A stretch of DNA of 64,000 bases from an uncultured archaeon (GTDB lineage: Archaea; Thermoplasmatota; Thermoplasmata; Thermoplasmatales; Thermoplasmataceae). The notes under the pieces were generated by a model, which saw only the letters and a list, made by a program, of their open reading frames with translations, ran no database searches and had not been told where the DNA came from. Every line of letters begins with the position of its first letter. Positions within the stretch are counted from its first letter, which is position 1. The position numbers and the translations under genes were made by a program. Where the stretch lies: positions 1,808,457-1,872,456 of the forward strand of contig CP009479.1 in NCBI GenBank assembly GCA_000965745.1. The letters run 5' to 3'. This document shows, piece by piece, positions 1-10,124 of the stretch.

Positions 1-624
1 GCCTTTGCAACTGCCTATCCTGATCAGCCGTTATCCGGGAAATGGGCTGAATCACTGGTGAGGTCATTCATCGGTTTCGAATACCCTGTGGAAAATAGCA
101 TTGATTTGGTAAAGGAGTTCCTCTCAGAGTCCAGGAAGATGTGGCTTGAATTACTGGACTGGGGCAACCTTAAATGGTATATCAGAAACAAATCAATGGA
201 TGGTGTTTATTCTTCCTTCTCCGGACTTTCAGTTGCATCCAGGGATGGGTCAATCGAATGCAGGGGGTTTTCTTCAGGCTTTGACAGTTTTTTTGCCCTG
301 GGCCCGTCAGATAAGATTTCCCGGATTGATTCTGCTGGCTCAGCACCCGATATTCACGAATTCTGGAGTGGCTATCCTTCTTCAGCTTCACCTGTGTACA
401 GGTGGGATGTTCCCCAGAATGTCTTTTTTAAGTGGATTGTCCCCATAGATTCACGTATGGTCCTTGTAACCCCCAACGTATCGAGGTGGATCCTGAAAAA
501 TCCCGAAGTTAACCTGGTCACTGTCGTTAATAACAGCGACCCGGGAGTCCTGGTAAGGAATAAGATGAAGTCGGGGGATATAGATAACGCCGAATCAGTG
601 GTTCTCCTTCTTGAAAGGCGATAG
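1..624 (+). CDS. PP2C-like protein lacking metal-binding residues (5' truncated)
   Basis: The frame is open from base 1, so the gene starts outside the window; the GTG at 58 is internal. I do not recognise it from a motif, but it aligns over its whole visible length with the PP2C phosphatase at 8001-8729: SGKWAESLVRSF matches SSIWANALVKAF, and YSSFSGLSV matches FSTFLGVQI, with WSGY shared by both. Every acidic metal-binding signature of PP2C is lost here: IADGAS is replaced by AFATAY, ATDAISKWVL by VTPNVSRWIL, and the final DDVTF by NAESVV. It is therefore probably a catalytically dead PP2C-fold protein, perhaps a binding or regulatory partner. It ends 9 bases from the convergent P-type ATPase. 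The paralogy is seen directly; the role is inferred. Confidence 0.72.
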   Translation, partial: AFATAYPDQPLSGKWAESLVRSFIGFEYPVENSIDLVKEFLSESRKMWLELLDWGNLKWYIRNKSMDGVYSSFSGLSVASRDGSIECRGFSSGFDSFFALGPSDKISRIDSAGSAPDIHEFWSGYPSSASPVYRWDVPQNVFFKWIVPIDSRMVLVTPNVSRWILKNPEVNLVTVVNNSDPGVLVRNKMKSGDIDNAESVVLLLERR

Positions 625-6902: not shown

Positions 6903-7150
6903 ATTAGAATTGAACATTGTTCGCACGTCGCATGCGAAACGTACTAGTTAAATCTTTACTTCTCAATCCGGTTTTACAAAGGTTTTCCTGGAAGATTCAT
7001 AGACATGTAGCACTATTATTATTTTCTTCTAATGTTTTTCATTCAATTGTCAGACAACACAGTTACCCGAGCTCACGAACTTGATAGATTGCAGCCTTGA
7101 AGCTAAATGTAATTATATTTTGCCTAAAATAAATCTGTCTGACAGCTAAG

Positions 7151-7158
7151 ATTATATT
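7151..7158 (+). promoter_or_regulatory. TATA box of the vWA-PP2C operon
   Basis: ATTATATT is centred about 25 bp before the ATG at 7180, consistent with a leaderless transcript carrying the vWA and PP2C genes. The rest of the 6903-7179 gap shows no gene. Confidence 0.55.
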
Positions 7159-7179
7159 GTTTCATTATTATGGGGTCGC

Positions 7180-8004
7180 ATGACCTATTCATCCGAAATA
7201 AGCAGGAAGAATCCTGGACTATTCATTTTTCTCATAGACCAGTCTAGATCGATGAGCCACAAGATTGGCGGCAGCGACAGGTCGAAAGCGATAGAAGCTG
7301 CTGATGCAATAAACAGGCAGTTGAACGAATTGATTAACAGATGCACCAAATCCGAAGGAATCAGAGATTACTTTGAAATCGGCATCATAGGATATGGGGG
7401 TGCAAGAGGACAGGCGTTCTCACTTCTCAAGGATTCGACTCTTGTGCCGATCAGCGAACTTGAGTCCAGAATACTCAAAATGGAAAACAGGACACAGGTA
7501 ATAGAAGACCAGGAGGTCGAATACGAACTGCCGATATGGTTTGAACCCATTGCCGCAAGCGATACTCCAATGGTCAAGGGCCTTCAGTTGGCTGAGGAAT
7601 GGGCCAAAGACTGGGCTGCAGAGCATCCTGAATCATTCCCGCCCATAATTATAAACATTTCTGACGGGGAAGCTACAGATGGCAACCCAATGGACGTAGC
7701 GGGCAACATTTTCTCAATATCCACTTCAGATGGAGATGCAATGATCTGGAACTGCCACCTTTCAAGCAACAAAATTGAGCCAGTTTCTTTTCCAAACGAC
7801 TCATCCAGCCTTCCTGAGGACAGGTACGCCCAGACCATGTTCCAGATGTCCAGCACACTGCCGGACAACATGGTTGCCATTGCCAGAGAGGAATATACTG
7901 ATGTTGAGGATGGTGCCAAGGGCTACGTATTTAACGCCCAGCTCGAGGACCTGATCAAACTTCTGGACATAGGAACAAGAGCAGTTTCCTCGCTGATGCG
8001 ATGA
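7180..8004 (+). CDS. TerY-like von Willebrand factor A domain protein
   Basis: This 274-residue protein is a single vWA domain, a metal-dependent protein-interaction fold. The MIDAS motif DQSRS sits at residues 20-24 after the strand GLFIFLI; the distal MIDAS threonine is probably in ASDTPM, and NISDGEATDG supplies the last acidic position. There is no signal peptide, so it is cytosolic. The stop overlaps the next gene by four bases (ATGA), indicating translational coupling to the PP2C phosphatase. In bacteria, TerY-type vWA proteins occur with a PP2C and a protein kinase (the TerY-P triad linked to tellurite and stress systems), and the same trio is here. Its role as a phosphorylation-controlled scaffold is an inference. 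Confidence 0.86.
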   Translation: MTYSSEISRKNPGLFIFLIDQSRSMSHKIGGSDRSKAIEAADAINRQLNELINRCTKSEGIRDYFEIGIIGYGGARGQAFSLLKDSTLVPISELESRILKMENRTQVIEDQEVEYELPIWFEPIAASDTPMVKGLQLAEEWAKDWAAEHPESFPPIIINISDGEATDGNPMDVAGNIFSISTSDGDAMIWNCHLSSNKIEPVSFPNDSSSLPEDRYAQTMFQMSSTLPDNMVAIAREEYTDVEDGAKGYVFNAQLEDLIKLLDIGTRAVSSLMR

Positions 8005-8729
8005 TTTCCGTAAAGGAATTTCATCGCCCCAAACTGGGTAACAGCGATGATGAGTACGAAGATGCCTTTGCATGCAACTTTAAGAACAGGAGATTCGCCA
8101 TAGCTGATGGTGCAAGCGACTCAATTTTTTCCAGTATATGGGCTAATGCCCTCGTTAAGGCGTTTTCAGACTCAACTCTTCCATTTTCCAGGGAAAGTGC
8201 CTTTCTGAGGAATATAATCTATATGGCCAGAAAGACCTGGTACAATAATATCGAATGGGATTCCCTTAAGCTCTTTGTCAAGAACAAGGCACTCAAGGGG
8301 TCTTTTTCAACCTTCCTTGGTGTGCAGATAGACCCTTCAGGGCTCAACTACCATTACAGGGCAATAGCAGTCGGGGATTCATGCCTCTTCCTCAGGAACA
8401 ATGATGATATCACAGGTTTCCCGATAAATGACCCTTCTAAGTTCAATATCACTCCAAAACTTATATGGAGTGGCTATGGAAGTCCGTTTCCTGAGGACTA
8501 CAACACAAAACTTCCAGAGATAAAATACTACGAGGGCAAGATAAAGCCCGGCGAACAGATGCTTATGGCCACCGATGCCATTTCAAAATGGGTGCTTGAA
8601 AACTCTCCAAAGTCATTTGACCGGCTCTGCAGGATGGATGACCCTTACAGGTTCATTACGGGAATGCTTGAGGCCAGGGAGCTGAGAAATGATGATGTCA
8701 CATTTTCCGCCATCACTTTAGAGATGTGA
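8001..8729 (+). CDS. PP2C-type protein phosphatase
   Basis: This 242-residue protein should be a Mg/Mn-dependent serine/threonine phosphatase. It shows the PP2C landmarks in order: EDAF near residue 19, IADGAS near 34-39, GDSCLF in mid-protein, MATDAISKWVL near 194, and the C-terminal RNDDVTFSAITL that carries the last metal-binding aspartates. It is a minimal catalytic domain with no membrane segment. It is translationally coupled to the vWA gene and meets the protein kinase gene tail-to-tail with a 17-base overlap, so phosphatase, vWA and kinase form a compact signalling unit. The degenerate protein at 1-624 is its paralogue. Confidence 0.86.
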   Translation: MISVKEFHRPKLGNSDDEYEDAFACNFKNRRFAIADGASDSIFSSIWANALVKAFSDSTLPFSRESAFLRNIIYMARKTWYNNIEWDSLKLFVKNKALKGSFSTFLGVQIDPSGLNYHYRAIAVGDSCLFLRNNDDITGFPINDPSKFNITPKLIWSGYGSPFPEDYNTKLPEIKYYEGKIKPGEQMLMATDAISKWVLENSPKSFDRLCRMDDPYRFITGMLEARELRNDDVTFSAITLEM

Positions 8730-10089
8730 TTCTGCCAGGTGAAGCACCGTCCCAGAGTGGGTCTTTTCCCAATGCCTGATAGAGCAGCTTACCCAGTTTC
8801 CCGAGTTTTCCCTTCATTTTCATTATCTCTGCAAGAAGTTCCGAATTGGAAGGATCCTTGAAGTCTGCGGCCGAAAAAATCAGCTTGTCCCCGTCACTGC
8901 CATTGTAATCCCAAAGGTCTGGCTTCTCATATAGTGCAAGCAGGGAGGTGTATATTACAAGGAGGGAAAAATTGTCAAGGGAGCTGGAAAAATGCTCATT
9001 TCTGCCTGGATGCTGAAAATTGTCATGCCCTTTCTCGGGGGCCTTCCTTTTGGAGAATGCAGGAACATACATGCCGTCGTAGTCGATGAGCATCAGGTTG
9101 CCTGAAGGTCCAACCAGAATATTGTCTCCGGAAAGGTCTCCGTGCGCAAGTCCGTTAGCCTGAAGATCAGTGACCATGCCTAGAACACTTTCAGCCGCAT
9201 TCTTCAGTGCCTTCGAGTCATTCAGGCTCTCTGAAATAAATTCGTTAAGGCTTCTTCCGGTGATCCATTCCATCTTCAATACCGGATAATACTGTTTTGG
9301 ATTGGTCAACAGGCGCACTGCACTCATAAGGTACTGGAAATCAACTAGAAATGGAAGCTTCAGGGCAGCAATGTAATGGCCAATGTAATAATACCTTTCG
9401 GCAAGCCCCGTTGCAGCCCTTGTGAAGCATTTTATTGCGTAAGACTTTCCATTGGCGTTCAATTTGAATACCGTTCCGAAATTACCTGATCCAAAGATGT
9501 ATGACGTGTATTTGACGTTTGTATTCTTTTCCAGCTGTCCGTCCCTCAGTTCCATGTAATCTGGTGAAACGCTGAATTTAAGGTTCTGGAACGCTTGCGC
9601 GTAGGAACTTGAATTTGGCCATGATTTTATATCTTCGCCTTTGAATTTTTCAGGGACCTTTGGCACCCTGATCTGCCTGGGCTTTCCTGCCTGGCTGCGG
9701 TCGGAAGCATGCCCTTTTCCATTGTTTTTCCTGGCAGGGCTGACCACGTTAAATGATATGTCGTTAAGAACAGCATAACCCCTCCTTCCGTAAGCAGCGA
9801 CTGATGCCATGTGCTGCCCTGCCTCCCTCGTGCTGAAGGTGACAAGGTATCCTCCGTTATTACGATCAGCTTTTATTATGCGGCTTCTGCCTGAGGGCTC
9901 GACTATAGCAACATCGATGCGGTTGAATATACCATCCTCTGATAAGGCGATCCTGACCTTTTGCAGATTGCTTATATTCACTTCCTTCAGGAACTCAATA
10001 TCCACATTCCTGTTTTCAAGATGTTTCACCTTACCGGCTTTCTTTACCGGTTTTCTTGAAGTAGTGGGGCTCTTGGCTTTAGCAGGCAT
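8713..10089 (-). CDS. Serine/threonine protein kinase with N-terminal basic tail and beta-sandwich
   Basis: The 458-residue protein has an eukaryotic-type kinase core: glycine loop GSGNFGTVF (near 200), AIKCF with the ATP-binding lysine (near 219), catalytic loop HGDLSGDN (near 315) and IDYDG in place of DFG (near 335). Before it come a lysine/proline-rich tail (about 1-28) and a domain of about 90 residues ending near VSPARK, rich in beta-strand patterns and possibly Ig-like. The ATG at 10089 is chosen because a TATA box precedes it; a longer open frame to 10212 would run into the neighbouring gene. TerY-P triad kinases are related in context, but I see no C-terminal zinc ribbon here. It probably opposes the adjacent PP2C. 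Confidence 0.87.
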   Translation of the reverse strand: MPAKAKSPTTSRKPVKKAGKVKHLENRNVDIEFLKEVNISNLQKVRIALSEDGIFNRIDVAIVEPSGRSRIIKADRNNGGYLVTFSTREAGQHMASVAAYGRRGYAVLNDISFNVVSPARKNNGKGHASDRSQAGKPRQIRVPKVPEKFKGEDIKSWPNSSSYAQAFQNLKFSVSPDYMELRDGQLEKNTNVKYTSYIFGSGNFGTVFKLNANGKSYAIKCFTRAATGLAERYYYIGHYIAALKLPFLVDFQYLMSAVRLLTNPKQYYPVLKMEWITGRSLNEFISESLNDSKALKNAAESVLGMVTDLQANGLAHGDLSGDNILVGPSGNLMLIDYDGMYVPAFSKRKAPEKGHDNFQHPGRNEHFSSSLDNFSLLVIYTSLLALYEKPDLWDYNGSDGDKLIFSAADFKDPSNSELLAEIMKMKGKLGKLGKLLYQALGKDPLWDGASPGRITSLK

Positions 10090-10116
10090 CTGAATGGAGG
10101 TAGTATATACATAAAA

Positions 10117-10124
10117 TATAAAAC
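10117..10124 (-). promoter_or_regulatory. TATA box of the protein kinase gene
   Basis: The minus strand reads GTTTTATA about 28-35 bp before the ATG at 10089. The sequence around the start codon (10083-10097) is identical over 15 bases to that of the gene starting at 21066, which has the same GTTTTATA box. Confidence 0.5.

What the first reader, a model, noticed from the sequence alone, without database searches (positions are those of the whole stretch)
7180..10089. Archaeal TerY-P-like triad: vWA, PP2C and a protein kinase in one 3-kb module
A TerY-like vWA protein and a PP2C phosphatase overlap by ATGA, and a protein kinase gene converges on them with a 17-base overlap. In bacteria such trios (TerY-P triads) belong to tellurite/phage/chemical-stress systems with TerD and TerC-type partners, none of which is visible here. 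The kinase is atypical: a Lys/Pro-rich tail and a beta-sandwich precede the kinase core and the zinc ribbon known from triad kinases is absent. This may be a separate archaeal branch with its own targets. The tail-to-tail overlap would also let kinase and phosphatase transcripts form antisense pairs.
Basis: partly seen in the sequence, partly recalled or inferred. Interest (0 to 1): 0.72.

Follow-up and report, generated by a model that had tools for sequence, protein, structure and literature searches.

The report
Archaeal branch of TerY-P signalling triad
A three-gene kinase-phosphatase-metal-binding switch, known from bacterial phage-defence systems, exists in acid-loving archaea as its own lineage, with the kinase gene always facing the other two and with its sensor end swapped between three different types; what it controls is not known.

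Summary
TerY-like vWA (7180-8004), PP2C (8001-8729) and a convergent protein kinase (8713-10089) all match the PADLOC TerY-P models. The kinase matches only the kinase half of STK_OB, with no OB fold and no CxxC.

Survey results:
- In Thermoplasmatota the triad is single-copy and widespread. 28 of 37 family genomes hold the kinase, and all 27 complete triads keep the convergent order with 3' ends within -23 to +12 nt (one broken assembly excepted).
- All 47 archaeal loci with a kinase are convergent; all 29 bacterial ones are codirectional.
- TerY, PP2C and kinase trees each separate this archaeal branch from the bacteria.
- The kinase head comes in three types (beta-sandwich, as here; PH-like; multi-TM). 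Each tree needs only two changes of head type.
- Flanking genes are shared in 2/315 and 0/340 between-genus pairs and are mostly metabolic. TerD and TerC are absent from the genome.

Verdict: a real new variant of the TerY-P kind, most likely a chromosomal phosphorylation switch whose interchangeable head sets location or input. Its targets, any role in defence, and antisense regulation are untested. TM and beta-rich fusions on such kinases were reported before in actinobacteria (PMC7159879).

The parts
7150..7159 (+). TATA-like box about 26 nt before the TerY ATG (leaderless transcript likely)
   Evidence: sequence read; inferred
7180..8004 (+). TerY-like vWA protein, 274 aa, MIDAS D20-S22-S24...T129...D162; C55 invariant in archaea and bacteria, C192 invariant in archaea (19 of 31 bacteria)
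   Evidence: PADLOC TerY E=3.9e-82; residues invariant
8001..8004 (+). ATGA stop/start overlap TerY-PP2C
8001..8729 (+). PP2C/PPM phosphatase, 242 aa, metal ligands intact
   Evidence: PADLOC PP2C E=2.1e-24; alignment
8713..8729 (.). 17-nt tail-to-tail coding overlap of PP2C and kinase
8713..10089 (-). Protein kinase, 458 aa, start ATG 10089
   Evidence: Pfam Pkinase E=4.1e-12; STK_OB kinase half only
8716..9621 (-). Conserved kinase part (residues 157-458), beginning with WPNSSSYAQAFQN; HGD, DYD and QHP signatures shared with bacterial TerY-P kinases
9622..9741 (-). Linker residues 117-156, low-confidence at 119-135
9742..10005 (-). Beta-sandwich (Ig-like) head, residues 29-116
   Evidence: AlphaFold2 model; weak Filamin repeat hit E=0.015
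10006..10089 (-). Lys/Pro-rich N-terminal tail, disordered
   Evidence: sequence; pLDDT below 50 over residues 1-20
10114..10123 (-). TATA-like box about 25-34 nt before the kinase ATG: own promoter
   Evidence: sequence read; inferred

Best explanation
The locus is an archaeal branch of the TerY-P triad that works as a reversible phosphorylation switch. The kinase phosphorylates a target held or presented by the MIDAS-type vWA protein (perhaps TerY itself), and the PP2C, translationally coupled to the vWA gene, removes the phosphate. The kinase is transcribed from its own promoter on the opposite strand. Its N-terminal head (beta-sandwich here, PH-like or multi-TM in relatives) sets the location or input of a conserved kinase core and takes the place of the C-terminal OB fold or zinc ribbon of bacterial triads. 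It is a single-copy chromosomal system of Thermoplasmatales, more like a stress or envelope signalling pathway than a mobile defence cassette. Shown: three intact enzyme and adaptor domains, conserved linkage and orientation, head classes, distinct branch. Inferred: the enzymatic cycle, vWA as adaptor, head as sensor or anchor, role outside defence.
For: PADLOC matches for all three genes. Catalytic residues invariant or nearly so across archaea. 27/27 complete family triads share order and convergence; 47/47 archaeal loci convergent against 29/29 bacterial codirectional. TerY, kinase and PP2C trees put archaea and bacteria on opposite sides of one branch (SH-aLRT 99, 97, 90). Head type needs 2 changes on each tree, the minimum for 3 states, and is constant within every genus sampled twice. 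PH-like head: 7 strands plus a C-terminal helix with weak bPH_3, PH_TFIIH and GRAM hits. Neighbours are housekeeping and not conserved. No TerD or TerC. No relative on viral contigs.
Against: No experiment in archaea; no target known. The bacterial close relatives are validated antiphage systems, so a defence role is not excluded. Sporadic defence-type matches occur among 56 neighbours (type II methyltransferase and UvrD-like helicase models, each in single proteins). The heads have no strong Pfam match.
Confidence: 0.6

Rival explanations
1. It is a stand-alone antiviral defence system, the archaeal counterpart of bacterial TerY-P, with the head replacing the OB fold as the sensor of infection.
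For: All three PADLOC models hit. Bacterial relatives protect against phages (PMC7699616, PMC10889362) and are annotated as TerY-P anti-phage genes next to a type I R-M system in E. coli. The triad is missing from whole genera (g9, g18, g19).
Against: Single copy and present in most genera of the family; head type and all three trees agree, so it is mainly vertically inherited. Neighbours are metabolic, not defence islands. No viral-contig relative; two plasmid records, both cyanobacterial.
Confidence: 0.25
2. The tail-to-tail arrangement is itself a regulator: kinase and phosphatase mRNAs pair or their polymerases collide, so only one enzyme is made at a time.
For: 3' ends lie within -23..+12 nt in 26 triads, 20 of them overlapping against about 10% of 71 other convergent pairs. 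Order conserved while both flanks are reshuffled.
Against: Orthologues are not independent. Overlap is absent in g3, g10 and g15. Compact convergent pairs are common (34% of others within -25..+15). No RNA data.
Confidence: 0.12
3. An ordinary inherited gene arrangement: one ancestral inversion of the kinase, kept because the genes are needed together; the heads are unconstrained fusions with no switch function.
For: Every archaeal instance of the branch is explained by one inversion on the branch between bacteria and archaea.
Against: Both outer boundaries are broken between genera while the two inner ones are not, so linkage is probably selected; head type has stayed fixed within genera.
Confidence: 0.2

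Closest known systems
TerY-P antiphage system (TerY / PP2C / STK_OB), reported by Gao et al. 2020 and summarised in PMC7699616 and PMC11090510
   Same: The same three genes; TerY and PP2C codirectional and adjacent; kinase core shares the W/YPS..Y..A.Q start, HGD, DYD and QHP signatures; catalytic residues intact
   Different: Kinase gene inverted (convergent); kinase domain at the C-terminus with an N-terminal head; OB region (profile about 275-562) absent; core chromosomal gene rather than accessory island
TerY-P triads of CoCoNuT and Ter-associated loci with zinc-ribbon kinase (PMC11090510; Anantharaman et al. 2012, not readable here)
   Same: vWA, PP2C and kinase trio
   Different: No zinc ribbon, no TerD/TerC, no conserved helicase or nuclease partners
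Actinobacterial kinase/PP2C/vWA modules of GAP1-N2 systems (PMC7159879)
   Same: Kinase linked to PP2C and vWA, with reported fusions to a beta-rich domain or TM helices
   Different: Those lie in GTPase conflict systems of actinobacteria; no such partner is conserved here; orientation there not examined
Thermoplasma volcanium PPM phosphatase (Dahche et al. 2009, seen only as a reference in PMC3052367)
   Same: A PPM-family phosphatase of the same archaeal family, reported to hydrolyse phosphotyrosine
   Different: Whether it is the triad PP2C was not verified; lead only

Membership tests
TerY-P triad | TerY-type vWA with intact MIDAS | tested here: met
   PADLOC TerY E=3.9e-82; DxSxS, T, D invariant in 50/50 archaea
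TerY-P triad | PP2C phosphatase adjacent to TerY | tested here: met
   E=2.1e-24; ATGA overlap; adjacent in 27/27 complete triads
TerY-P triad | Protein kinase of the TerY-P kinase family next to them | tested here: met
   STK_OB E=3.9e-64 on the kinase half; kinase tree and signatures
TerY-P triad | Kinase fused at its C-terminus to an OB fold or zinc ribbon | tested here: not met
   Archaeal kinases match STK_OB only to about position 274/562 whereas a bacterial one matches 1-552; no CxxC; kinase core ends at the C-terminus
TerY-P triad | Three genes codirectional, as in all bacterial triads found here | tested here: not met
   Kinase convergent in 47/47 archaeal loci; codirectional in 29/29 bacterial loci and in E. 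coli G3/10
Ter tellurite/stress systems | TerD or TerC partners | tested here: not met
   No TerD or TerC match in the genome; controls ring in 2 and 9 genomes
TerY-P antiphage function | Protection against viruses | not testable with these tools
   No phenotype data for Thermoplasmatales
TerY-P antiphage function | Location in defence islands | tested here: not met
   56 neighbours of 14 genomes are mainly metabolic; only sporadic defence-type hits

The most novel reading that the evidence does not exclude
The Thermoplasmatales triad is a dedicated archaeal signalling pathway, not a defence system: kinase cores with interchangeable soluble, lipid- or protein-binding and membrane heads, balanced against a vWA-coupled phosphatase, with the convergent gene ends providing mutual transcriptional control.
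Probability: 0.15. Interest if true: 0.72.

Novelty: new variant of a known kind. Interest (0 to 1): 0.52.

Why it matters
TerY-P is known almost only as a bacterial phage-defence or stress module. A largely vertically kept archaeal branch with altered gene orientation and a swapped sensor would show what the core of the system is (vWA, PP2C and the kinase core) and what is replaceable (the head). It also gives a genus-by-genus natural series (beta-sandwich, PH-like, TM) for working out how the kinase is switched on. Thermoplasma genomes carry it, so cultivable species are at hand.

Tried and rejected
Unrelated, scattered genes: rejected. Conserved further partner next to the triad: none found. 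Solved-structure sequence search: only generic eukaryotic-type kinases for the kinase, nothing useful for TerY or PP2C. Foldseek of the full kinase: dominated by kinase domains, no information on the head. Pfam on the heads: only sub-threshold hits. Viral contigs: no relative. The primary Ter paper (doi 10.1039/c2mb25239b) is not held, so whether it already listed Thermoplasma triads is unknown.

Full report
Observation. TerY-like vWA 7180-8004 (+), PP2C 8001-8729 (+) and kinase 8713-10089 (-) are present as described, with ATGA and 17-nt overlaps. Pfam recognises the kinase (E=4e-12) and weakly the vWA, and nothing in the PP2C. PADLOC recognises all three as TerY, PP2C and STK_OB. The longest kinase frame opens at a TTG (10212), but a TATA-like box at 10114-10123 favours the ATG at 10089; a similar box at 7150-7159 precedes TerY. 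Two independent, probably leaderless transcripts are therefore likely (inference).

Distribution. In 61 relatives the kinase, the vWA and the PP2C are each confined to the window's own family apart from marginal kinase hits: 28 of 37 family genomes hold the kinase. A 390-genome sample of the phylum adds a same-class family (G361, same type) and one genome with two divergent triads (G404); genera g9, g18 and g19 lack it in every genome searched. In G404 one triad is codirectional, and in the other PP2C is divergent from TerY, so the fixed convergent order belongs to the Thermoplasmatales/Sysuiplasma branch, not to all Thermoplasmatota.

Arrangement. All 27 complete family triads are TerY>PP2C> <kinase. 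The gap between the two 3' ends is -23 to +12 nt in 26; Thermogymnomonas, whose kinase frame is broken, is the exception. In named genomes 47 of 47 archaeal loci with a detectable kinase are convergent and 29 of 29 bacterial ones codirectional. The two archaeal sets overlap, since many loci are the same assemblies. As an internal control, the gene beside TerY is homologous in 2 of 315 between-genus pairs and the gene beside the kinase in 0 of 340, so conservation of the inner boundaries is not background synteny.

Kinase anatomy. Archaeal kinases share a C-terminal core that begins with WPxxxxYxxAxQN, equivalent to YPSLEQYNQAFQ near the N-terminus of bacterial TerY-P kinases. Before it lies one of three heads: a beta-sandwich (window, Cuniculiplasma, E-plasma), PH-like domains (one or two copies), or 2-6 predicted TM segments (Thermoplasma, Sysuiplasma and others). 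TM segments were called by hydropathy alone, and head classes by profiles built from some of the same sequences. AlphaFold2 supports the sandwich and a 7-strand plus C-terminal helix PH topology. The OB half of STK_OB is missing; a bacterial control matches it through position 552.

Phylogeny. On TerY, kinase and PP2C trees the archaeal branch is one side of one branch (support 99, 97, 90), and head type needs two changes on each. The quick method and some long branches limit confidence in details. Sysuiplasma sequences nest near a Thermoplasmatales TM clade, so at least one transfer between orders is possible.

Function. Intact catalytic residues in 43-50 archaeal sequences support a working kinase-phosphatase pair with a metal-dependent vWA adaptor. 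Missing TerD/TerC, absence of conserved DNA-processing partners, and a housekeeping neighbourhood argue against tellurite and restriction roles. Antiphage activity of bacterial relatives (PMC7699616, PMC10889362) keeps defence as the main rival. Fusions of such kinases to beta-rich or TM segments were already noted in actinobacteria (PMC7159879), which limits the novelty of head diversity as such; the fixed convergent order and the co-evolving heads were not found described in the papers searched, a limited library.

Noticed in passing
window 1-624 (+), starting about 108 nt before the window (L031:7893-8624): A second PP2C-like protein, 24% identical to the triad PP2C (E=7e-22), that has lost essentially all metal ligands (ADG, GDS, ATD and NDD motifs gone): a probable pseudophosphatase found only in this genome among the 61 searched.
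   Followed up: partly
L031:6646-7668 (-): An archaeal actin homologue (ALP_N and MreB-like_C) transcribed divergently from the pseudophosphatase; possible functional pair.
   Followed up: no
L066 / L048 (Thermogymnomonas acidicola): Triad kinase frame broken and the PP2C N-terminal part aberrant (D36 replaced by R); sequencing error or decay.
   Followed up: partly
L165, L166 (G404): A same-class genome carries two divergent TerY-P triads with different gene orders.
   Followed up: partly
L119-L141: Many Rhodospirillales, including magnetotactic genera, carry a short TerY-P variant whose kinase (about 320 aa) lacks the OB half.
   Followed up: no
L121:7740-10913: A Thermotogae TerY-P kinase of 1057 aa with long N-terminal Gly/Asn/Phe-rich repeats and a C-terminal FGE-sulfatase domain.
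   Followed up: no
L113, L117, L118, L132: Some bacterial STK_OB kinases end in a hydrophobic, probably membrane-anchoring tail, so membrane attachment is not unique to the archaeal TM heads.
   Followed up: no
TerY C55, C192, H193 (window 7342-7344 and 7753-7758): C55 is invariant in all TerY proteins aligned; C192 in all archaeal but only 19 of 31 bacterial ones; H193 nearly invariant. A possible second metal or redox site besides MIDAS.
   Followed up: partly
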